The position numbers were made by a program, and so were the translations under genes. Of a DNA stretch of 64,000 bases, positions 3,813 through 52,412 are shown in pieces. How positions within the stretch are numbered: position 1 is the first letter of the stretch; every line of letters begins with the position of its first letter. A model generated the notes under the pieces. That model was given only the letters and a program-made list of their open reading frames with translations, had not been told where the DNA came from and searched no databases. Source of the stretch: an uncultured Clostridia bacterium (GTDB taxonomy: Bacteria; Bacillota; Clostridia; Oscillospirales; Acutalibacteraceae); the NCBI GenBank assembly GCA_947589575.1, contig CANQBM010000003.1:62001-126000 (forward strand), written 5' to 3'.

Positions 3813-4433
3813 TATCTCACGTTTTTTGTAGGCGTTAACCGATAATAAAATGGAAACGATTATCATAATCACAGCGATAACCGCAAATAAAAACGCATTT
3901 TTTTGCGGAGTAAAAGCACCCTCGATCAACGTGCCACTTGATATATTTTTTGCGTTTATAATAGTTATTGATGATGCCAGCACCGCAATAATTATCATAT
4001 TGATAACTCTCCCTTTAATGTATCCGAATTTATATACAACAGGAAAAACAACAATCGGTGACATCGTACCGCAAAAGAGCATAATTGACATTAAACTTAA
4101 TAAATCCAAAATATCAAAGCCGAAAACAAAAAAGGAAACCACTCCCTCAAGCAGTATTACCGGCGTAATAATTATAAATAAAAGCAGATATTTTTCGCAC
4201 ACGACTGTTACTCTGCTAACCGGCAACAATAACTCGTATTTATTCCACTTGTATGCCTCGTCATAAGCAATCGTATTTATCGGTATTATTGAAACTATTG
4301 CTATTGAATAATATAAAAAATACGTTGATTTCCCCGAAAACATGGAAATTGCCAAAAACAGCGCCGAAACAGCAAGCAATAATAAACAATGCTTTTTTAT
4401 TATCATAAAATCTTTAATTAATAAACCTCTCAT
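3810..4433 (-). CDS. ABC-2 type transporter permease
   Basis: A 207-residue integral membrane protein with about six hydrophobic helices, starting MRGLLIKDFMIIKKH, which fits the short ABC-2 permease family (ABC2_membrane_5 type). It should form the channel of an ABC transporter with the ATPase encoded just upstream, to which it is coupled by an ATGA overlap at 4430-4433. The substrate is unknown; GntR/YtrA-linked systems of this kind often respond to cell-wall-active compounds, but that is inference from family context. Confidence 0.85.
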   Translation of the reverse strand: MRGLLIKDFMIIKKHCLLLLAVSALFLAISMFSGKSTYFLYYSIAIVSIIPINTIAYDEAYKWNKYELLLPVSRVTVVCEKYLLLFIIITPVILLEGVVSFFVFGFDILDLLSLMSIMLFCGTMSPIVVFPVVYKFGYIKGRVINMIIIAVLASSITIINAKNISSGTLIEGAFTPQKNAFLFAVIAVIMIIVSILLSVNAYKKREI

Positions 4434-14075: not shown

Positions 14076-15005
14076 TCATTTTATTTTTTCATTATGAGCC
14101 TGCTGAAGCCTCATTTCAAAATCCTGTTTTTCCTTCTGGCGAAGCGTCTGTAAAATAGTTCCCGAAAAGAAAGATAAGATTGAAACAGTCATAACAAAAC
14201 AGCATACTATAAGCGTCGGGAAGTTTGGAACCGCGCCTGATTTGATATAAGTTGTAAGCACGGGAATAAAGAATAAAATTGCAAGCACAGCAAGCAAAGC
14301 AGCGATTATTGAAAAGAAAGCGAACGGCTTATAGTTTTTAAACATCCTGATAATTGTTTTAATAACCTTGAGTCCGTCCGAAACGGTATTAAGCTTAGAT
14401 TCGCTTCCGTCGGGTCTGTCACGATATTCAACAACAACATTTTCTACAAACATATTTTTATCGACTGCGTGAATTGTCATTTCTGTCTCAATCTCAAAGC
14501 CCTTTGAAAGAACAGGATAAGTTTTTACAAATTCATAGCTGAAAGCTCTGTAGCCTGTCATTATGTCTTTAATATCATTTTTAAATAAGGTGTTTATACT
14601 TTTTCTGACAAGTTCATTTCCGAAATTATGAAACGGTCTTTTATTTTCCTCAAAGTATGTTGATGAAAGCCTGTCGCCTATAACCATATCCGCATTTCTG
14701 CCCAAAACCCCTTCAACCATCTTCGGTGCAAATTCAGCCGGATATGTGTCGTCGCCGTCTGTCATGACATAGCATTTTGCGTCTATCTCTCTGAACATTC
14801 TGCGGATAACATTTCCTTTACCTTGACAGTATTCGTGCTTAACCACAGCGCCGGCTTTCTCCGCAATTTCAGCCGTTTTATCGGTAGAATTATTATCATA
14901 TACATATATTACCGCTGACGGAAGTGCCTTTTTAAAATCAGCAACCACCTTCTCGATTGTTTTTTCCTCATTGTAGCATGGAATTAATACAGCAATATCA
15001 TCCAT
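14076..15005 (-). CDS. GT2 glycosyltransferase, polyprenyl-phosphate sugar transferase type
   Basis: A 309-residue family 2 glycosyltransferase resembling DPM1/GtrB enzymes, which move a hexose from a nucleotide sugar to undecaprenyl phosphate. The GT-A domain starts at AVLIPCYNEEKTIEKVV; the metal-binding motif is MTDGDDTYP (about 95) and the acceptor region is GYRAFSYEFVKTYP. Two membrane helices close the protein (AFFSIIAALLAVLAILFFIPV and VCCFVMTVSILSFFSGTIL). With GtrA and the large membrane transferase upstream it forms a classical sugar-flipping and transfer set. Confidence 0.88.
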   Translation of the reverse strand: MDDIAVLIPCYNEEKTIEKVVADFKKALPSAVIYVYDNNSTDKTAEIAEKAGAVVKHEYCQGKGNVIRRMFREIDAKCYVMTDGDDTYPAEFAPKMVEGVLGRNADMVIGDRLSSTYFEENKRPFHNFGNELVRKSINTLFKNDIKDIMTGYRAFSYEFVKTYPVLSKGFEIETEMTIHAVDKNMFVENVVVEYRDRPDGSESKLNTVSDGLKVIKTIIRMFKNYKPFAFFSIIAALLAVLAILFFIPVLTTYIKSGAVPNFPTLIVCCFVMTVSILSFFSGTILQTLRQKEKQDFEMRLQQAHNEKIK

Positions 15006-15043
15006 ATTTTTATTCTCCTTTTCTTACTCTGTTTTATCTTTTT

Positions 15044-15232
15044 TAATGATATAAATATTGTAAACACAATTACACATACCATCGGTATGTCATACCTCAT
15101 ATATGAAACAGAGCCGGCAAAAGAAAATATCCTTAACTACATATCGGAAACAGCGACTTAAGCGCGAAAAACACTGCCGAACATATCAAGCTCAATACCA
15201 TGCGCTTATATTTTAATAATTGTGATAATTTC
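15044..15232 (-). pseudogene. Collapsed remnant of a second copy of the large membrane-protein gene
   Basis: Three short blocks align in order with the intact gene at 15844-17742. Bases 15044-15130 match its 3' end (15867 on; for example ATGATATAAATATTGTAAAC is identical). Bases 15131-15180 match an internal part (around 16820-16875, with an 11-base gap). Bases 15180-15232 match its 5' end and ribosome-binding region (17695-17745). Most of the gene is gone and the start codon is changed, so it is not coding. It is the decayed downstream member of a duplicated GtrA/membrane-protein pair. Confidence 0.85.
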
Positions 15233-15843: not shown

Positions 15844-17742
15844 TTACGTTTTAGCATCAGACTTCAATGATATAAATATTGTAAACGGAACTACACATAC
15901 CATCGGTACGGCGTACCTCATATACGAAATAGGTCCTGCAAAACAAATCAGATAGTTAAGAAATACAACAGAAGTAGCAAGCAGAGCTTTAAATCGTTTA
16001 TGCTTTAGTGAATAGAATAAAAGAAATACATATAACCAAGAATAAGTTACCGTTCTTATAAATACTTTTGAAACGGGATTTGAGTCAATCAAATCCATAA
16101 ACGTATTAACTGATGATCTGAAGGCGGGATTTCCCATATAATTCGGAAAATCCTCAATAAGATCTGTAATATGCGTATCACCGACTCTTGAATACGCAAC
16201 AAGACTTTTTTTCTCCAGACAAAACCATCCGTAATGAAGATTAAGGTATGCCTGGATATATGTTGATGGGTGCGCTTTTAAGCCTTTAAACCATACCTTA
16301 AAATATTTAACAAGGTCCTCATTATCCGAATACTTATTAAATTTATTCTTTACCGAATCGGAAATCAGCGGATTATACGCTTTTCCTATCTCTTCAAGCG
16401 TTCCCCCGTTATTCAGTACATTCAATATTGCCTTTTCATCGTCCTCGCTTATTTCATCTCGGTGTTCTTTAATATATCTTGCAGTCTGAACAAAGGGCAC
16501 GGAAAGCATTTCCCTCTTACTGCCCGGAGTTATACTCAACGCCGGATAAAGTATACTTACAAAGCCTATCTGAAAAACAAGAAGCGCCGCAAGCACAACC
16601 GAGCCGACCTTTAACATCCTCTTTTTTTCCTTAAACAGAATGATTATCAGCAGTATGAAAACCACAAGCATAATATAAAAGCTGTTATTTCTTATAAGCA
16701 TAAACAGAATTAATGTAAAGAAAAACGCGAACATCCTTTTGAAACTGATTTTTTCAACGACAGCTATTTCATACAGCTGAACAACCGTCAATACAAACAG
16801 CACGCAGAACAAAGTATCCTTAACTACAGTCATTGAGTATATCGGAAACAACGGATTAAGAGCAAAGAACACCGCTGAGCAGACTGTAAAAGATTTTTTG
16901 CACAAATGTTTTTTCATTACGGCTATCGTGTACGCAAACGATAACGCAAGTAATAACGCCTGCAACATACACATAATTTCAAATGAGACGGCGTAGGAAG
17001 AAATTGCTTTACCAAACTTAACAAACAGTGCAAGAATCGCTGTATAAAGAACAGGATGATGATTATTTAAAATAACGGAATCATCCAGAAGGACTATGGA
17101 TCTCTGTGTCCAACAACATTCACGATTATTAAAAATCTGTGCAAGCTCGTCCTTACAATCCGGTGAAAAGCAGCCCGGATAGAGCAGTATCATATATGGA
17201 ATCCAGCATATAAAAAACAATACGGTATATTTTATTAAATCACTTTTAAACGATGATTTTTTATAATTGCCTTTAAGTGCAACAGGACTGTATTCAACAT
17301 TTGACAAAAAGCAGAACATGGTATACACAGGGAATGAAAAGCCTATTATTTTTATAACGGCAATTAAAACCGCGCTTTTACTTCCAAACACCATATCCCA
17401 CGATGAAACCTTATTGTAGCTTTCACATAAAAGCTGAACAAAAGGAACAAAAAGGGAAAAAAGATACGCAAATAACTTTTGCGCTCGAGTGCCCTTATAT
17501 TCGGGTCGTTTTAAAAAGAAATAAAATACTGCCGCAAAAATTAGCAAAGAAAATATATCAAGCGGACCTACGCTTTTAATAATATGATTTAATAATTTAT
17601 AAAGCGTGAACTCATAAAGCGGTGACGCTTTTACAGATGCAGATAGCTTTCCCCCTCCGCTTTTCATATAAAACGAAACAGTCGTAACTGCAGAACATAT
17701 CAAGCTTAATACCGTTCGTTTATATTTTGATAATTGTGACAA
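15844..17742 (-). CDS. Large polytopic membrane protein, DUF6020-like (GT-C type)
   Basis: A 632-residue protein with about 11-13 hydrophobic helices and an extracytoplasmic segment (around 400-520). The motif MILLYPGCFSPDCKDEL just after a helix, followed by NNHHPVLYT, resembles DUF6020 proteins, which have the layout of GT-C transferases that take sugars from polyprenyl carriers. Enzyme activity is inferred. The start is a TTG at 17742 with AGGAGG eight to nine bases upstream. It forms a module with GtrA and the GT2 gene, likely glycosylating a wall polymer or surface protein. Confidence 0.8.
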   Translation of the reverse strand: MSQLSKYKRTVLSLICSAVTTVSFYMKSGGGKLSASVKASPLYEFTLYKLLNHIIKSVGPLDIFSLLIFAAVFYFFLKRPEYKGTRAQKLFAYLFSLFVPFVQLLCESYNKVSSWDMVFGSKSAVLIAVIKIIGFSFPVYTMFCFLSNVEYSPVALKGNYKKSSFKSDLIKYTVLFFICWIPYMILLYPGCFSPDCKDELAQIFNNRECCWTQRSIVLLDDSVILNNHHPVLYTAILALFVKFGKAISSYAVSFEIMCMLQALLLALSFAYTIAVMKKHLCKKSFTVCSAVFFALNPLFPIYSMTVVKDTLFCVLFVLTVVQLYEIAVVEKISFKRMFAFFFTLILFMLIRNNSFYIMLVVFILLIIILFKEKKRMLKVGSVVLAALLVFQIGFVSILYPALSITPGSKREMLSVPFVQTARYIKEHRDEISEDDEKAILNVLNNGGTLEEIGKAYNPLISDSVKNKFNKYSDNEDLVKYFKVWFKGLKAHPSTYIQAYLNLHYGWFCLEKKSLVAYSRVGDTHITDLIEDFPNYMGNPAFRSSVNTFMDLIDSNPVSKVFIRTVTYSWLYVFLLFYSLKHKRFKALLATSVVFLNYLICFAGPISYMRYAVPMVCVVPFTIFISLKSDAKT

Positions 17743-44813: not shown

Positions 44814-47294
44814 TTATGGCTCGCTTTTGGTTTTATTTAGTCTTACAAGAACACTGTAATCCTTAGCGTTAATTATATTATCGCCCGTCAATTCAAACAT
44901 ATATCCCGTCACGGTGTCATAAGGAGAAGTATTTATATATCTAACATTCCAAAGAGCTAAAGCGCCTGATATGCTTGCGGTATAAATTTCTCCGCAGACA
45001 TCGCAAGTATAACTCAATCTGCCGTTGTCATTAACACCTGTATATTTATATTTATGACCGGGCGCGGGAACAGTATTTGTTCTTGTTTCACCGCAAAGAT
45101 CGCAAGTATCACGTGTAACTCTCGGCACAGCGCAGCTTCCCTGCGTTATAATCGCTGTTGTGTAACTGCCTTCTATCCATTCATCGTGCTGTGTTCTTGC
45201 GCTTTGCGTTGTTTTACAACGCGTGCAGGTAGGAGTAGCCATACTGTGTCCCGGTTTTTCGGGAATAGGTGTTAAAACATCTTCATAATTGTGTCCGAGT
45301 GCCTCGATAGTAATTTCAAATTCCGTACCGCAGGTTTTGCAGACAGAAGAAGCTTTTCCGTCATTAACACAATTTGGATCAGAGATAACCGAATAATTAA
45401 GCTCATCAACAGTATGACCGGTTGCATTTACAACATCTCTTGTCGACGAACCGCACCTATTACATTTCCATGTATTATATCCTGCATCTGTACAGGTAGG
45501 CGGTACGGTGCTTTCTTCAACAATGACGTAATCGTGTCCTAACGCATCAATGTTTTCGCTTTTAGTTAAATTGCAATTATGGCACGCGTAGTATATCTTG
45601 CCCACCGCAGTACAGTTTGGCTCAGTCCTTGCGGTTTCGTACCAGTCGTGTTGTCCGTTTGCGGGAATAGATACGTTTCTTGTCTGCGAGCATATATTAC
45701 AGGTATCTCTCTGTAAACCGTTTACAGTGCACGTCGGATTTAAAAGAACCGCTGATGTATAATAACCCTCCACCCATTCAATATGCTCTGATGTAATTGT
45801 TTCTTCATCACATACCGAACAGTTGTAAATTTCATATGTATGACCGTCTTCAAGTGTATTATCAAGAGTATCGGTGAGCTGATTCTGGTGCCCGAGCGGG
45901 GCAATCTCTCTTGTCACCATATTACCGCATACGGTGCAAAGACCCTCTTCGCTTCCCGCCTGTGTACAGTTAGGCTCAGTTTTAACATCATATTTTTCAA
46001 CAGTATGATGAACAGTCAAAGCAAGTTTACGCTCAACCTTTCCGCAACCCTCAACCTTACAGGTATATGTATCAATACCCGGGGTTGTGCAGGTTGATGT
46101 GGTTGTAAAATCGTAAAATCCCTCTACAAATGCGATATGCTCTATTTCTTCCTTTGTTTCCAGGCAATTTGCGCATAAGTATGAGTTATAGATATGACCG
46201 TCGTTCTCGGTTTCATCATAAGATTCGGAAATTTCCCAGCTGTGACCTTTTGCGGGTAATTCGGATGTTGAAACAACAAAACCGCATTCGTCGCACACCT
46301 GGGTTGTGGTACCTTTTTCCGTACAGTTAGGTTCGCGGGTAATCTCCTCGTGTGTTGATACGTGGTCACACGGGTCTATTGAAACAAAGACATAATCGCT
46401 GTTCGGATGGTCAGTAACATATTTTTCAGTGGTTGAGCCCTTGTGCCCGTAAAAGGTTATCTGCTGGTTTGAACCGTTAAACGGGTCTTCCTCAACAATA
46501 CCTTCAAATAATGTGTTTGGATTATTTACAGTAACGGAAGAAATGAAAGTACAATTTGCAAACGCGCGTGTTCCTATGCTTGTAATTTCCTGCGGCAATT
46601 CAATATCTGTCATCTTACAATTAAAAAAGGAATAGGAATCAACTGCCGTTATTGTTGATGAAAAAATAACATTTCTTACTCCGGAGCCGTAAAACATACG
46701 TACTCCTGTTGAGTTTAAACCTGTGCCGTACTTGACTGTTTCAAGGTTTGTACACTCCATAAACGCGCCATCATCAAGGGTTGTCAATGAATCGGGGAAT
46801 GTTATGCTTTTTAACGAACTGCAGCCTCTGAACGCCATAGCCTCAATCGTTGTAATATTCTGCGGAAGAGTAATTTTATCAAGGGATGTACATTCTCTGA
46901 ACGCTCCGTAGTTGACCTTGCTCCCCGAAATAGTTTTCAAAGTTGACGGGAATTTAACAGATGTTAAAGCAGTACAGCCGTAAAAACTAAGCGTGCCTAT
47001 ATTTTCAATACCCTCATCAATAATAACCGTTTCAATCTCGGTTTTATAATCATACCAAGGCGCTCTGTTAACAGCGGTATCGCCATAATCCTTAGTATCA
47101 CCGTTTCCTGTAATTGTAAGGGTTTTAGTTGCCTTATCATAATTAAATTTAGCATTATTTCCTGTCTGCAAAATACTGCCGCTTGCGCCGCAATTTCCGC
47201 TGGTAGCGCCCTGTACAATAGATATATTAAAACAAAACAGCGCACCGACAAGAAGAGCAAGCGCCAAAATCGCTGACATTAGCCTGCGTTTCAT
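44814..47294 (-). CDS. Secreted BspA-like LRR protein with Cys-rich repeats
   Basis: An 826-residue secreted protein. Signal peptide: residues 1-29 (MKRRLMSAILALALLVGALFC...). Residues about 55-290 hold BspA-type leucine-rich repeats (YGCTALTSVKFPSTLKTI; FRGCSSLKSITFPDSL; FANCTFISSVTV). About 300-770 hold about a dozen short units with the pattern C-T-x2-G ... CxxC ... A-x-G-H, each with a CxxC pair. The end (FELTGDNIINAKDYSVLVRLNK) resembles one half of a dockerin/EF-hand calcium repeat. No sortase motif is seen. A role in adhesion or host/plant-fibre contact is inferred from the family. Confidence 0.85.
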   Translation of the reverse strand: MKRRLMSAILALALLVGALFCFNISIVQGATSGNCGASGSILQTGNNAKFNYDKATKTLTITGNGDTKDYGDTAVNRAPWYDYKTEIETVIIDEGIENIGTLSFYGCTALTSVKFPSTLKTISGSKVNYGAFRECTSLDKITLPQNITTIEAMAFRGCSSLKSITFPDSLTTLDDGAFMECTNLETVKYGTGLNSTGVRMFYGSGVRNVIFSSTITAVDSYSFFNCKMTDIELPQEITSIGTRAFANCTFISSVTVNNPNTLFEGIVEEDPFNGSNQQITFYGHKGSTTEKYVTDHPNSDYVFVSIDPCDHVSTHEEITREPNCTEKGTTTQVCDECGFVVSTSELPAKGHSWEISESYDETENDGHIYNSYLCANCLETKEEIEHIAFVEGFYDFTTTSTCTTPGIDTYTCKVEGCGKVERKLALTVHHTVEKYDVKTEPNCTQAGSEEGLCTVCGNMVTREIAPLGHQNQLTDTLDNTLEDGHTYEIYNCSVCDEETITSEHIEWVEGYYTSAVLLNPTCTVNGLQRDTCNICSQTRNVSIPANGQHDWYETARTEPNCTAVGKIYYACHNCNLTKSENIDALGHDYVIVEESTVPPTCTDAGYNTWKCNRCGSSTRDVVNATGHTVDELNYSVISDPNCVNDGKASSVCKTCGTEFEITIEALGHNYEDVLTPIPEKPGHSMATPTCTRCKTTQSARTQHDEWIEGSYTTAIITQGSCAVPRVTRDTCDLCGETRTNTVPAPGHKYKYTGVNDNGRLSYTCDVCGEIYTASISGALALWNVRYINTSPYDTVTGYMFELTGDNIINAKDYSVLVRLNKTKSEP

Positions 47295-48419: not shown

Positions 48420-49169
48420 TTATTCAGCTGTTTCCTCTGCAACTGCCTCTTCCACAGCAGTCTCTTCATCATCAGCTGTGTCCTTACCGTCACGTCCCTC
48501 AATTACAGCGTCGGCAATAGCGCCTGCAATAAGCTTTACCGCGCGGATAGCGTCATCGTTACCCGGAATAACATAATCCACTTCATCAGGATCACAGTTT
48601 GTATCGACAATAGCAACGATAGGAAGACCTAATTTCATAGCCTCCGATACTGCGATTCTTTCCTTGCGAGGGTCAACGATGAACATTGCGTTAGGAATTT
48701 TCTTCATCTCGGTAATACCGCCGAGATACTTTTCAAGCTTTTCAATCTCCAGCTCAAGACCTACAACCTCCTTTTTAGGGAGAAGGTCAAAAGTACCGTC
48801 CTCACGCATAGCCTTAAGCTGTGCAAGACGCGCTACTCTGCCGCGGATTGTCTTGAAGTTTGTGAGCATACCGCCGAGCCAGCGTGCGTTTACGTATGGC
48901 ATTGCGCAACGCTCAGCCTCTTCCTTTACGGAATCCTGAGCCTGCTTCTTTGTACCTACGAAAATAATTGAACCGCCGTCTGCTGCAAGGTCACGAACGA
49001 ACATATAAGCCTCATCAAGCTTCTTAACTGTTTTCTGAAGGTCGATGATATAGATGCCGTTACGCTCTGTGAAGATGTATTCTGCCATTTTGGGATTCCA
49101 TCTTCTTGTCTGGTGTCCGAAATGAACACCTGCTTCTAAAAGCTGTTTCATTGAAACTACATTTGCCAT
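48420..49169 (-). CDS. rpsB: 30S ribosomal protein S2
   Basis: A 249-residue S2 ([55 protein letters not shown]). The C-terminus carries a short acidic tail ([18 protein letters not shown]). AGGAGG precedes the ATG. Drives the rpsB-tsf unit from a near-consensus promoter. Confidence 0.98.
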
Positions 49170-49281
49170 AATAATTTCCTCCTTTTAAGGTTAATCCTCC
49201 GCAAAGGAATATGGCACAAGCCGATTAATACACCTACGGCTTATTCCCATGCGTGCGTATTCGCATACATTTTACGAATGC
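49170..49281 (-). promoter_or_regulatory. Structured leader of rpsB
   Basis: About 110 transcribed bases precede rpsB. They can fold: GGAAT...AAGCCG pairs with CGGCTT...ATTCC in 49205-49252, and a second stem may form around 49251-49280. Several ribosomal-protein operons are autoregulated at such leaders, so S2 feedback is possible; this is inference. Confidence 0.5.
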
Positions 49282-49287
49282 TGTGAA

Positions 49288-49316
49288 ATTATAGCAGAAA
49301 ATACTTGAAAAATCAA
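49288..49316 (-). promoter_or_regulatory. Promoter of rpsB-tsf
   Basis: Minus-strand TTGATT (49316-49311) and perfect TATAAT (49293-49288), spacing 17 bases. Confidence 0.8.
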
Positions 49317-49337
49317 GCCATTATTAGAAATTATTAA

Positions 49338-49553
49338 TTATTTATTTACAGCCGTATTATTTGTCCTCCCTAATAAATAATCAACACTAACATCGTAAAA
49401 ATCAGCAAGTTTTACTAATGTAGGTGCCGTTAGTTCTATAACACCGTTTTCATACTGAGAATAAGTATTTTGAGAAACATTTAAATATTCAGCAAGCTGT
49501 TTTTGTTTGTAGTCATTATCTTCTCTTAAATACCTAATATTTTGATATTGCAT
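49338..49553 (-). CDS. XRE-family repressor
   Basis: A 71-residue Cro/CI-type helix-turn-helix protein (KQKQLAEYLNVSQNTYSQYENGVIELTAPTLVKLADFYDVSVDYLLG), with essentially nothing beyond the DNA-binding domain. The ATG at 49553 sits after GGGGGGTGA. It is divergent from the micropeptide/ABC genes, and two identical 18-base operators lie between them. No strong terminator separates it from the rpsB promoter downstream. Confidence 0.92.
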   Translation of the reverse strand: MQYQNIRYLREDNDYKQKQLAEYLNVSQNTYSQYENGVIELTAPTLVKLADFYDVSVDYLLGRTNNTAVNK

Positions 49554-49581
49554 ACTATCACCCCCCAATAATATTATGCAA

Positions 49582-49624
49582 TATCTGTATTTCAGATATT
49601 GACATTTATCTGTATTTCAGATAT
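49582..49624. promoter_or_regulatory. Twin operators for the XRE repressor
   Basis: TATCTGTATTTCAGATAT occurs twice, identically and in the same orientation, at 49582-49599 and 49607-49624 (25 bases between centres). Each has perfect ATCTG/CAGAT arms around TATTT. The second fills the spacer of the plus-strand promoter, the first touches its -35, and the first is also close to the divergent repressor start. Confidence 0.88.
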
Positions 49625-49627
49625 AAT
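49599..49627 (+). promoter_or_regulatory. Strong sigma-A promoter of the micropeptide-ABC operon
   Basis: TTGACA (49599-49604) and TATAAT (49622-49627), both perfect, 17 bases apart. Operator copies overlap it, so it should be strong but tightly repressed. Confidence 0.88.
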
Positions 49628-49631
49628 AATG

Positions 49632-49645
49632 TTGTTAGCTAACAA
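49632..49645. repeat. Perfect palindrome at the transcription start
   Basis: TTGTTAGCTAACAA is a perfect 14-base palindrome five bases after the -10 element, unlike the XRE operators. It could be a site for another regulator or a 5' mRNA stem that protects the transcript. Confidence 0.6.
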
Positions 49646-49668
49646 ATAAATTCAAAAGGAGGGTAACT

Positions 49669-49755
49669 ATGGGTTTCTTATTTGGTAGCATCTGCTATTC
49701 TGTTGCTGTTATTGCAGGAGCAAAATGGTGTGCAAAAGGTAAAAAGAAAAGATAA
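49669..49755 (+). CDS. 28-residue cationic membrane micropeptide
   Basis: A short ORF (ATG 49669, stop 49753) with a perfect AGGAGGG site ten bases upstream. The peptide begins MGFLFGSICYSVAVIAGA and ends KWCAKGKKKR: one hydrophobic helix of about 18 residues, two Cys (positions 9 and 21) and a tail with six Lys/Arg. It has no leader-type double-Gly or sec cleavage site that I can see. It is the first gene behind the strong regulated promoter and is followed by an attenuator, then an ABC exporter. It may be a membrane-active peptide (bacteriocin, toxin or small transporter partner); function is unknown. Confidence 0.72.
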   Translation: MGFLFGSICYSVAVIAGAKWCAKGKKKR

Positions 49756-49768
49756 TAAATAATTATCT

Positions 49769-49800
49769 TGGCGAAGTTGTCTTTACAGCTTCGCCATTTT
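49769..49800 (+). terminator. Attenuator between micropeptide and ABC genes
   Basis: TGGCGAAG (49769-49776) pairs with CTTCGCCA (49789-49796), followed by TTTT. The short T run suggests partial termination, giving much more micropeptide than transporter mRNA, as in many peptide-export operons. Confidence 0.75.
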
Positions 49801-49812
49801 CGAGGGAAATTT

Positions 49813-50502
49813 ATGATAGTTTTAGAAAATATTAATAAATCATTTAAAAATAAAAAAGTATTAAGAAATCTCTCTTTAATAGTCAGAGATGGTAAAATAA
49901 CTGCGTTAGTGGGAAAAAACGGTTGCGGAAAAACAACTTTAGTAAGGCTTATATCAGGTTTAATTAAACCTGACAGTGGTACAATAATTAATTCTGATAA
50001 AAATATTGGTGTATTTTTAGGTGGAGATACTAAACTGTATGACAACTTGACAGGATATGAAAATATAAAATTTTTTGCCGGTATGCACAAAATTGATAAC
50101 AAGCAATTCCATAATAGATTTGATGAATTATCTGAAATATTGAAATTTAAAGATTTTGCTAACGAAAAAGCATCTTATTACTCAAGGGGAATGACACAAA
50201 AAATAGGCTTTGCAATATCTGTAATTCACAATCCTAATACAATAATTCTTGATGAACCCTCAACAGGTCTTGATATTATTGCAGCAAATGATGTTATAAA
50301 CTTTATCAATTACTGTAAACATCAAAATAAAACAATTTTAATATCCTCACATAATATGGCAGAAATTTCAGATATGAGTGATTATATAGCCATAATAAAA
50401 GACAAATCTATCGCCTTATATGATGAAACCAGTGTTTTTTTCAGTAATGCAACAGGAACGGAAAAAACTAACATACTCGCAAATTTTTTGGAGATAAAAT
50501 AA
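49813..50502 (+). CDS. ABC transporter ATP-binding protein (NatA-like)
   Basis: A 229-residue ATPase: Walker A VGKNGCGKTT, signature YSRGMTQKIGFA, Walker B TIILDEPSTGLD, H-loop ISSHNMAE. The ATG at 49813 has GAGGGAAA upstream; the longer frame back to 49768 would start inside the attenuator hairpin. It pairs with the NatB-like permease whose start overlaps its stop. The DNA is clearly more AT-rich than the flanking housekeeping genes. Confidence 0.93.
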   Translation: MIVLENINKSFKNKKVLRNLSLIVRDGKITALVGKNGCGKTTLVRLISGLIKPDSGTIINSDKNIGVFLGGDTKLYDNLTGYENIKFFAGMHKIDNKQFHNRFDELSEILKFKDFANEKASYYSRGMTQKIGFAISVIHNPNTIILDEPSTGLDIIAANDVINFINYCKHQNKTILISSHNMAEISDMSDYIAIIKDKSIALYDETSVFFSNATGTEKTNILANFLEIK

Positions 50503-51599
50503 TGAATAATGCAATTATCAATATTTTAAACAAAGAACTTAAAAATATTTTCAGAGATAAATTTTTTATAATTATATTAATAGTTCCAATATTTATATTT
50601 CCGTTAATAAATTTTGGAGCAGAATATATTTTTAATGATTCACAAATTATTTCTAACAAATCAAACATTGCAATAATCAATAATGAAGATATCAGCATTA
50701 TTAATAAATACTTTAAAAATAATGATAATTACAAGATCACTAATTCTTCTAACCCCTTTGAATTGTTAAAAAACGGAGACATTGATTTTATAATTATGTC
50801 AAATCCCAATAAAACTATATCTTTTATTTATAATTCAAAATATTATTCTTCACTGTTTAAAGCAACATCATGCGGTGAAAAATTTGAAAAGGAATTAATA
50901 AAAGAAAATAAAATGAAAAATCCATATGCTCTTTCGTGTGTTTTAAAAGATGAAAAAGGAAATTCTACAAATTCAGCATCAATAATTTCTCTTATTACTC
51001 CTGTAGTATTTATTCTTGTTGTTTGTCAGGGAAACTCCTTACTTGCAAACGATATATTTGCAGGTGAAAAAGAAAGAAAAACGATGGAATTGTTATTATT
51101 ATCACATACCAAAAAAACTACAATTTACTTAGGTAAAGTATTCACATTATTAGTAATTGAGATTTTATGTACTATTTTAAATATACTGTCTTATACTTTT
51201 TCAAATTATATTACTCCTAATAATCAAAATCACACAAACATAAATAATTTTTTATCACTTATTATATCAGCTGTATCCTTATGTATGATTACTGTATTTA
51301 TAAGTTCATTAATATCTTTGCTGTCAAAAACATATAGATGTTCTCAAATTATTAACGAAGTTTTTTCAGTAATCCCAGTATTTGCAGCAATATATTTTTT
51401 AATAGATAATATAGATATAAGTGATGCTTTAATATCTTTTATACCAATTTTTAATTCAGTAAAATCCATTATAAATACAATGGCTGATGAGATAAATATT
51501 CAGTTTTCCTTATTGTCTTTTACTATAAATTTTGCATACTGTATTTTGATTACCTTAATCAGCAACAAATATATGCGGAGTGAAAAAATATTGAATTAA
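50502..51599 (+). CDS. ABC-2 permease, NatB-like
   Basis: A 365-residue permease of the NatB/YhaP type: membrane helix near 22-45, a large extracytoplasmic domain (about 45-165), then five helices. The cytoplasmic coupling motif DIFAGEKERKTMELLLLS is characteristic of this family. NatAB exports Na+ in Bacillus; relatives export or give immunity to peptides. Here the linked micropeptide suggests the latter. Coding is very A/T-rich (many Ile, Asn, Lys), consistent with horizontal transfer. Confidence 0.88.
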   Translation: MNNAIINILNKELKNIFRDKFFIIILIVPIFIFPLINFGAEYIFNDSQIISNKSNIAIINNEDISIINKYFKNNDNYKITNSSNPFELLKNGDIDFIIMSNPNKTISFIYNSKYYSSLFKATSCGEKFEKELIKENKMKNPYALSCVLKDEKGNSTNSASIISLITPVVFILVVCQGNSLLANDIFAGEKERKTMELLLLSHTKKTTIYLGKVFTLLVIEILCTILNILSYTFSNYITPNNQNHTNINNFLSLIISAVSLCMITVFISSLISLLSKTYRCSQIINEVFSVIPVFAAIYFLIDNIDISDALISFIPIFNSVKSIINTMADEINIQFSLLSFTINFAYCILITLISNKYMRSEKILN

Positions 51600-51611
51600 C
51601 TAATTAAATCA

Positions 51612-51648
51612 AAAAGCTATCAGAAAGAATTTTTTTCTGATAGCTTTT
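51612..51648. terminator. Bidirectional terminator after the ABC cassette
   Basis: AAAAGCTATCAGAAA (51612-51626) and TTTCTGATAGCTTTT (51634-51648) form a perfect hairpin, ending the plus-strand cassette against the minus-strand gatD. Confidence 0.9.
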
Positions 51649-51689
51649 AATTTATATTGCGTGTAAAATTATTCGACAAAAACAATAAC

Positions 51690-52412
51690 TTATTTTATAT
51701 AAAGTCTCATAACCTGTTCTCTTGCCTTTGCCTCAAGTGAGTCGTCCAGGCTTGAAAGCTCTGATTTTCCGTATTTATTTTCAAGCGCCTTTGAGATTAA
51801 CAGGTCGGCAAGCTGAGGATTTTTCGGCAGAACAGGTCCGTGCGAATACGTACCGAAGGTATTTTTAAAACGAACGCCTTCCGTACCATCCTCGCCGTTA
51901 TTACCAAAGCCCTTAATCATTTTGCCGAGCGGCTCAACGCTCTTGCCGAGATATGTTCTGCCGCTGTGGTTTTCAAAGCCTACAACCTCAATACCCTCTT
52001 TGGTTTTATAGGCATAGTTGCCTATCATACGCTCCTCCTTACCCTCAGTATAAAAATCGAGAGCGCCTATATATTCAAGCATTTTTCCGTCATAGGTTTT
52101 ATAGTATTTGCCGAGCATCTGGTATCCGCCACAAATTGCGAGCATAACGGTACCGTTATGGATAGCCTTATTAATTTCAGTATCCTTGCCTTTTTTTAAA
52201 TCGTCAAGCAGTACGTCCTGTTCAAAATCCTGACCCCCGCCGATAAAGAGTATATCATAGTTATCGGCATTAAAGTTTTTTCCCATTGTGACTGCGTCGG
52301 TTTGAACATCAATGCCTCTTGCTTTCATCCTTTGAGTCAGTGCAATTATATTACCCCTGTCACCGTAAAGATTAAGCATATCGGGGTAAAGGTGCGCAAT
52401 TCTTATTATCAT
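51690..52412 (-). CDS. gatD: Lipid II isoglutaminyl synthase, glutaminase subunit GatD
   Basis: A 240-residue class I glutamine amidotransferase that supplies ammonia to MurT for amidating D-Glu of lipid II to D-isoglutamine. HLYPDMLNLYGDRGNI start, nucleophile Cys in LAICGGYQML and the His in FGTYSHGPVLP are present. The ATG at 52412 overlaps the murT stop (ATGA) and has GGAG upstream. Confidence 0.94.
   Translation of the reverse strand: MIIRIAHLYPDMLNLYGDRGNIIALTQRMKARGIDVQTDAVTMGKNFNADNYDILFIGGGQDFEQDVLLDDLKKGKDTEINKAIHNGTVMLAICGGYQMLGKYYKTYDGKMLEYIGALDFYTEGKEERMIGNYAYKTKEGIEVVGFENHSGRTYLGKSVEPLGKMIKGFGNNGEDGTEGVRFKNTFGTYSHGPVLPKNPQLADLLISKALENKYGKSELSSLDDSLEAKAREQVMRLYIK

What the first reader, a model, noticed from the sequence alone, without database searches (positions are those of the whole stretch)
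49553..51648. Repressed cassette: XRE regulator, 28-residue membrane peptide, attenuator and ABC exporter
An AT-rich block between rpsB and gatD holds a minimal XRE repressor and, divergently, a tiny cationic one-helix peptide with an excellent RBS, a partial terminator and a NatAB-type ABC exporter. Everything points to a peptide made in excess over its transporter under tight control. I know no described peptide of this sequence. It may be a micro-bacteriocin with immunity/export, a membrane-stress sensor, or a toxin whose exporter is the antidote.
Basis: partly seen in the sequence, partly recalled or inferred. Interest (0 to 1): 0.85.

Follow-up and report, generated by a model that had tools for sequence, protein, structure and literature searches.

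The report
Tiny membrane-peptide and exporter cassette
A rare, horizontally exchanged gene cassette in gut Clostridia pairs a previously unannotated 24-28-residue greasy, positively charged peptide with an ABC transporter that may well export it, which points to a very small self-exported antimicrobial or signalling peptide system.

Summary
The cassette is real. A bare-HTH XRE gene (49338-49553, -) faces a 12/12 consensus promoter overlapped by two identical 18-nt operators. That promoter drives a 28-aa ORF (49669-49755), then a stable stem-loop, an ABC ATPase and an ABC-2 permease. Relatives were fetched with the permease alone. The nearest (goat caecum MAG, 38% permease identity) has an XRE, the same operator geometry, two tandem 24-aa homologues, stem-loop and ABC. 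Two more distant loci also carry 25-28-aa peptides and a stem-loop before the ABC genes. The four permeases group together in trees (97/95, 100/98). 42 other permease loci show no such peptide (41 scored). The cassette is sporadic (2 of 80 genus genomes) and recently exchanged between two species. The XRE is conserved in only 2 of 4 lineages, and the stem-loop is not a U-tract terminator. Best reading: a leaderless membrane-active or signalling peptide made in excess over its exporter. No activity is shown. A regulatory leader peptide is the main rival. No described family matched.

The parts
49338..49553 (-). minimal XRE-type repressor gene, 71 aa, HTH domain only
   Evidence: Pfam HTH_3 66.5 bits against cut-off 23; 43% identical to the XRE of the G079 cassette
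49581..49599 (.). operator copy 1, ATATCTG-TATTT-CAGATAT, between the divergent promoters and abutting the -35
   Evidence: identical 18-nt direct repeat; G079 has ATATCCC-AATTT-GGGATAT in its divergent promoter region
49607..49624 (.). operator copy 2, TATCTGTATTTCAGATAT, in the -35/-10 spacer and -10 of the peptide promoter
49599..49627 (+). sigma-70 promoter TTGACA-17-TATAAT of the peptide/ABC operon
   Evidence: 12 of 12 consensus match
49655..49663 (+). Shine-Dalgarno AAAGGAGGG of the peptide
49669..49755 (+). 28-aa peptide: hydrophobic segment about residues 3-18, net charge +6, no acidic residue
   Evidence: homologues in L003 (2 copies), L081, L080
49769..49796 (+). intercistronic stem-loop between peptide stop and ATPase ribosome site
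   Evidence: a stem-loop at the same place in 3 relatives
49813..50502 (+). ABC transporter ATPase, 229 aa from ATG
   Evidence: Pfam ABC_tran 87.1 bits against cut-off 25
50502..51599 (+). ABC-2 type permease, 365 aa, start overlaps ATPase stop
   Evidence: Pfam ABC2_membrane_3 60.5 bits against cut-off 31.6
51612..51648 (.). bidirectional intrinsic terminator closing the operon and the convergent gatD side
   Evidence: both strands

Best explanation
A self-contained peptide-export cassette. When the XRE repressor leaves two operators over a consensus promoter, one transcript is made. A leaderless, cationic single-helix peptide is translated at high rate from a near-perfect ribosome site. A stem-loop after its stop codon gives more peptide mRNA or peptide than exporter (3' protection, processing or partial termination). 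The ABC-2 ATPase/permease pair takes the peptide out of the membrane or cytoplasm and at the same time protects the producer. The exported peptide would act on neighbours' membranes (micro-bacteriocin) or as a signal. Shown: gene order, promoter and operator sequences, recurrence and duplication of the peptide, recurrent stem-loop position, grouping of the ABC permeases, sporadic spread. Inferred: repression, excess, export, toxicity and target.
For: Relatives were fetched by permease, so the peptide's presence is an independent observation: all 3 further distinct permeases of the group (G079, G402, G1314), and near-identical G048, have one or two 24-28-aa peptides ahead of the ATPase. Best local score of any upstream frame to the peptide family: 50, 50, 41, 39 in the four loci, against a maximum of 33 in 41 control ABC loci and 34 in five further loci scanned over other lengths. 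The four permeases form one side of a branch, 100/98 (46 rows) and 97/95 (40 rows). Two similar copies in G079 (14 of the first 18 residues identical, 9 of those 14 with a different codon) and two different peptides in G1314: copy-number gain fits a substrate better than a stoichiometric subunit. Each distinct locus has a strong stem-loop between peptide and ATPase (z -5.65, -4.66, -3.27, -6.54). All six peptides have no acidic residue and charge +2 to +6. AT-rich, 2 of 80 genomes in the genus, near-identical between two species at one site: an accessory trait under exchange.
Against: No activity, expression or export data exist. The helix has a low calculated hydrophobic moment (0.06-0.14), unlike what is expected of amphipathic lytic peptides (general knowledge). 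The XRE has no sensing domain and is not beside two of the four cassettes. No separate immunity protein or protease lies in the cassette. The second G1314 peptide shows no sequence homology to the family (1538 of 2000 full shuffles score as high), and the G402 peptide only modest homology (4 of 2000 full, 19 of 2000 core/tail shuffles). Two of 41 controls have a stem-loop z as low as the weakest cassette. The ATPase ribosome site is predicted to pair with the peptide ORF in 3 of 4 loci, which also fits a regulatory leader ORF.
Confidence: 0.45

Rival explanations
1. The short ORF is a regulatory leader peptide: its translation, or ribosome pausing on it, opens the ATPase ribosome site, so the operon is an inducible efflux pump for a drug or host compound.
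For: Predicted pairing of the ATPase ribosome site with the peptide ORF: 9.3, 11.4, 0.6 and 10.5 expected pairs in window, G079, G402, G1314; codon-order shuffles reach the observed value in 7, 2, 147 and 22 of 200. The stem-loop sits in the position of an attenuator. ABC-2 exporters often handle drugs (general knowledge).
Against: Duplicated and divergent peptides, most with a strong ribosome site; amino acids conserved over changed codons (9 of 14 between the G079 copies, 8 of 11 between window and G079a, but only 3 of 12 between window and G079b); the stem-loop lies wholly after the stop codon; a repressor-type gene and operators already sit at the promoter; the coupling signal is absent in G402 and exploratory.
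Confidence: 0.2
2. A toxin/antidote module: the peptide is a type-I-toxin-like membrane peptide that harms the cell unless the ABC pair extracts it; the module persists by addiction.
For: Tight-looking control by XRE and twin operators; one hydrophobic helix with a cationic tail; sporadic distribution.
Against: No antitoxin RNA family found; PADLOC gave only generic domain matches for ATPase and XRE and none for peptide or permease; an energy-driven exporter as an antitoxin would be unusual; distinguishing it from a bacteriocin needs experiment.
Confidence: 0.15
3. The peptide is a small accessory subunit or activator of the ABC transporter.
For: Co-occurrence with one group of permeases; single transmembrane-like segment.
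Against: Two copies in two of four loci and a stem-loop that would give unequal dosage; strong turnover of the peptide (second G1314 peptide not alignable); 42 related permease loci show none.
Confidence: 0.12

Closest known systems
Staphylococcal phenol-soluble modulins with Pmt exporter and PmtR repressor
   Same: Peptides with a dedicated ABC exporter giving export and producer protection, and a small repressor with a very small ligand domain (PMC5354552, whole text read)
   Different: PmtR is GntR/YtrA-type, not XRE; Pmt has four components, here two; modulin genes are under quorum control and not in the exporter operon (recalled); ATPase scores 114.8 against the PmtC cut-off of 375; these peptides have a low calculated moment
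Multi-peptide leaderless bacteriocins (aureocin A70, garvicin KS)
   Same: Several short cationic peptides of 30-34 aa, an HTH regulator AurR for aureocin A70 (PMC6131525, passages)
   Different: Peptides here are 24-28 aa and matched no family; aureocin A70 has a separate immunity protein AurI (title in the reference list)
Type I toxin-antitoxin membrane peptides (recalled, no call)
   Same: Size, single hydrophobic helix, cationic tail
   Different: No antitoxin RNA family found; here linked to an ABC exporter
ABC-2 (NatAB-like, name recalled) exporters of the same class
   Same: ATPase and permease architecture
   Different: 42 such loci show no family peptide

Membership tests
ABC-2 exporter (PF00005 + PF12698) | ATPase and membrane domain above curated cut-offs | tested here: met
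   87.1 against 25 bits; 60.5 against 31.6 bits
PSM exporter Pmt | PmtA/PmtC ATPase above NCBIfam cut-off | tested here: not met
   PmtC 114.8 of 375, PmtA 100.2 of 350 bits
PSM exporter Pmt | amphipathic peptide helix | tested here: inconclusive
   Eisenberg moment 0.06-0.14 for six peptides; no known modulin was run as a yardstick
Leaderless bacteriocin | sequence match to a described family | tested here: not met
   no Pfam or NCBIfam hit for six peptides at E up to 5; one PHROG 'bacteriocin production or immunity' hit for one member at E 0.28, chance level
Leaderless bacteriocin | cationic, no cleaved leader, beside a transporter | tested here: met
   charge +2 to +6, hydrophobic almost from the start, ABC downstream; absence of a leader judged by eye
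Leaderless bacteriocin | antimicrobial activity | not testable with these tools
   needs experiment
Type I toxin-antitoxin | antisense antitoxin RNA | tested here: inconclusive
   three Rfam matches, all below cut-off and none an antitoxin, in 49300-51700; new antisense RNAs cannot be excluded without RNA-seq
RstR-type XRE repressor | NCBIfam NF041951 cut-off | tested here: not met
   50.3 of 80 bits; generic HTH_3 is met
Regulatory leader ORF | ORF-dependent masking of the downstream ribosome site | tested here: inconclusive
   3 of 4 loci show pairing; shuffles 7, 2, 147, 22 of 200

The most novel reading that the evidence does not exclude
A new family of very short leaderless, transmembrane-type peptides (24-28 aa, typically MGF-[hydrophobic]-[RK] tail), carried singly or as pairs in a one-operon module with its own ABC-2 exporter/immunity. 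The peptide itself may loosen a bare-HTH XRE repressor, giving autonomous, self-inducing peptide warfare or signalling between gut Clostridia.
Probability: 0.22. Interest if true: 0.8.

Novelty: new variant of a known kind. Interest (0 to 1): 0.56.

Why it matters
Genes this short are commonly missed by annotation (general knowledge), and no profile in Pfam or NCBIfam covers these six peptides. If exported and active, they would be shorter than the 30-34-aa multi-peptide leaderless bacteriocins tabulated in the passages seen. The module is compact and testable, and its permease group is a hook to mine more members.

Tried and rejected
Mobile-element search: plasmid and phage collections gave one weak permease hit each (24-28% identity). 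Both loci were fetched and the stretches scanned showed no family peptide (best scores 25 and 28). Three viral-contig scans gave no relative. The one genome-contig scan gave 6 loci, of which G048's and G079's contigs are cassettes. L020, L021 and L022 gave best scores 31, 26 and 34 (L022 over 2.5 kb, above the 33 of the controls but below the weakest cassette, 39); L023 was not scanned.

Peptide-profile search of 394 genomes of the order gave G000 and G079 strongly and ten weak hits. G275 (L007) proved to be a promoter-like intergenic stretch read as an ORF. L010 and L012 showed no ABC gene by eye. The other seven were not inspected. The same search did not report G402, which by its handle number was in the sample and whose peptide was found later through the permease; whether G048 was drawn is not shown, and G1314's handle is later. 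Peptide searches of this kind are insensitive.

The first small-ORF scan used first-start ORFs only and was superseded. In one search some control loci do have hydrophobic frames with a ribosome-site match before the ATPase (e.g. L034, L035, 6 nt); they do not resemble the peptide. Row L093 in tree 1 was a wrong short ORF. Tree 2 leaves out six controls (L031, L038, L049, L092, L093, L094); both trees warn of long branches meeting, also between the two cassette pairs. Control count: 42 loci (L093 dropped). Two of 41 controls (L027, L045) have stem-loop z below G402's, so a stem-loop alone is not diagnostic. Unoccupied-site check: of five genus genomes fetched, G015 shows it. G013's gatD has another neighbour. 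G008 shows no rpsB match up to its contig end. G011's contig ends at once, and G009's stretch was not compared. The permease model had mean pLDDT 46.9 and pTM 0.34 with four sequences and was not used for a fold search.
Full report
Anatomy. GC is 21-30% inside against 35-48% in the 500-nt windows on either side. XRE 49338-49553 (-) has only a helix-turn-helix domain (71 aa; HTH_3 66.5 bits). Divergent to it is the only 12-of-12 promoter in the scanned region (TTGACA-17-TATAAT, 49599-49627). Two identical 18-nt copies of TATCTGTATTTCAGATAT start at 49582 and 49607; the first abuts the -35 and overlaps a weak minus-strand promoter-like site (9/12, chance level), the second fills the spacer and -10. 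Then come AAAGGAGGG, the 28-aa ORF 49669-49755, a stem-loop at 49769-49796, the ATPase (ATG 49813) and the permease (50502-51599), closed by a bidirectional terminator.

Is the ORF more than chance? In 120,003 nt (window plus L097-L099, which were chosen because they hold cassettes), on both strands, 21 ATG ORFs of 18-45 aa have a ribosome-site match of at least 5 nt and 14-residue hydropathy of at least 1.6. Only 4 have a match of at least 7 nt, and all 4 sit immediately before the ABC genes in question. Six peptides are tabulated: length 24-28, charge +2 to +6, no acidic residue, calculated hydrophobic moment 0.06-0.14.

Relatives, found with the permease and not the peptide. Own genome: one copy. 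98 relatives at E<=1e-10: besides the own genome G048 (100%), G079 (38%), and G084 (24%, an ordinary transporter) (L004 read). Genus with the ATPase profile: 2 of 80 genomes. G079's family: 3 of 196 at E<=1e-25, namely G079, G402 and G1314, all inspected. Their genera: 1 of 6, 1 of 12, 1 of 7. Class: 32 of 391 at E<=1e-20; 29 of the 31 besides the own genome gave loci, none with a family peptide. Phylum: only the own genome of 348 at E<=1e-27. Order with the four-row profile: 15 of 295 at E<=1e-30, of which 13 are not cassettes. Samples overlap.

Conservation of the arrangement. G079 (L003): divergent XRE (43% identical), operator ATATCCC-AATTT-GGGATAT with the same 7-5-7 geometry and outer bases as the window's ATATCTG-TATTT-CAGATAT, two tandem 24-aa peptides MGFLAFSVIYSVVVITAAGKVRRR and MGFLAYSIVYSVVVIGAAYKLRRK (sequence), stem-loop, ABC. 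G402 (L081): MGFWIVWGILFVCVTAASAKTLRRK, ribosome-site match of 7 nt, stem-loop, ABC; a 117-aa XRE and an integrase-like gene precede it (names by eye). G1314 (L080): MATFVLTFCIVYSAVALQSSYTLIKLCR and MVTLCNLFMACWIVINGCRVLRTVLK, stem-loop, ABC; no XRE ORF of 60 aa or more in these 6 kb, only a 44-aa HTH-like fragment about 2 kb upstream. So peptide and stem-loop are constant in 4 of 4 distinct loci, the divergent XRE in 2 of 4.

Controls. Best local BLOSUM62 score of any upstream frame against the window/G079 peptides (self excluded): 50, 50, 41, 39 for the four loci; 41 control ABC loci reach at most 33, and five more loci scanned over other stretches at most 34. Residue shuffles with core and tail kept apart reach the observed score in 0 of 2000 (window), 0 of 2000 (first G1314 peptide), 19 of 2000 (G402) and 1719 of 2000 (second G1314 peptide, hence not demonstrably homologous). 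Stem-loop z in the 75 nt before the ATPase: -5.97, -5.70, -5.50, -3.23; 2 of 41 controls lie below the weakest. In trees the four permeases are one side of a branch with support 100/98 (46 rows) and 97/95 (40 rows); long branches are flagged and the root is not known. Codons over the first 18: between the two G079 copies 14 residues agree and 9 of those use a different codon; window versus G079a 11 and 8; window versus G079b 12 and 3; G402 versus the others 6-7 and 1-4.

Mobility. In G015 the rpsB and gatD sides are separated by about 58 nt where the window has the cassette (L079: matches end at 4325 and resume at 4384), an unoccupied site; of the other four genomes fetched none was informative in this way, and in G013 gatD has another neighbour. 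G048 has the cassette at the same site. Between window and G048 there are 4 differences in 49150-51720, the two 250-nt bins bordering that stretch have 5 each, and bins further out 8-33. This suggests recent homologous exchange of the cassette with its edges. No transposase- or integrase-like ORF lies inside the cassette (by eye).

How it may work. The operators over a perfect promoter imply strong repression and strong output on release. Two peptide copies in two loci argue for a dispensed product. The nearest functional precedent is the staphylococcal modulin system: dedicated ABC exporter that also protects the producer, and a small repressor displaced by the peptide (PMC5354552, whole text). 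The next is the multi-peptide leaderless bacteriocins with 30-34-aa peptides (PMC6131525, passages). Membership in either was tested and not met by sequence.

Main rival. In 3 of 4 loci the ATPase ribosome site is predicted to pair with the peptide ORF; codon-order shuffles reach this in 7, 2, 147 and 22 of 200. This exploratory signal would fit translational coupling. It is compatible with a functional peptide, but it also supports a regulatory-leader reading, which I keep at 0.2.

Literature. Eight full-text searches were run; I read one paper whole and passages of another, and otherwise saw listings only. None of the listings showed a peptide/XRE/ABC cassette of this kind; this covers only the open-licence library, those terms and the rows listed. 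No peptide sequence was searched in the literature. A structure model of the permease was too poor to use.

Noticed in passing
L097:6264-7646 (G402): The G402 cassette directly follows a 117-aa XRE and an integrase-like gene (names by eye), suggesting it rides on an integrative element there.
   Followed up: partly
window 49190-51690 versus L018: Almost no differences between two species over the cassette and its edges, with about 5% divergence beyond: a likely recent homologous-recombination tract.
   Followed up: partly
L007:1489-1596 (G275): Peptide-like ORF (profile E 0.0016) that overlaps a promoter-like stretch and has no ABC gene in its locus; judged chance.
   Followed up: yes
window 14984-15082 and 15844-15903 (-): Two small ORFs with similar starts (MVCV..FTIFISLK) and 5-nt ribosome-site matches.
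   Followed up: no
window 44814-47294 (-): 826-aa probably secreted protein with many repeated CxxC-bearing units (by eye).
   Followed up: no
window 49669-49830: Predicted long-range pairing between the start of the peptide ORF and the ATPase ribosome site, also peptide-ORF pairing in two of three relatives.
   Followed up: partly
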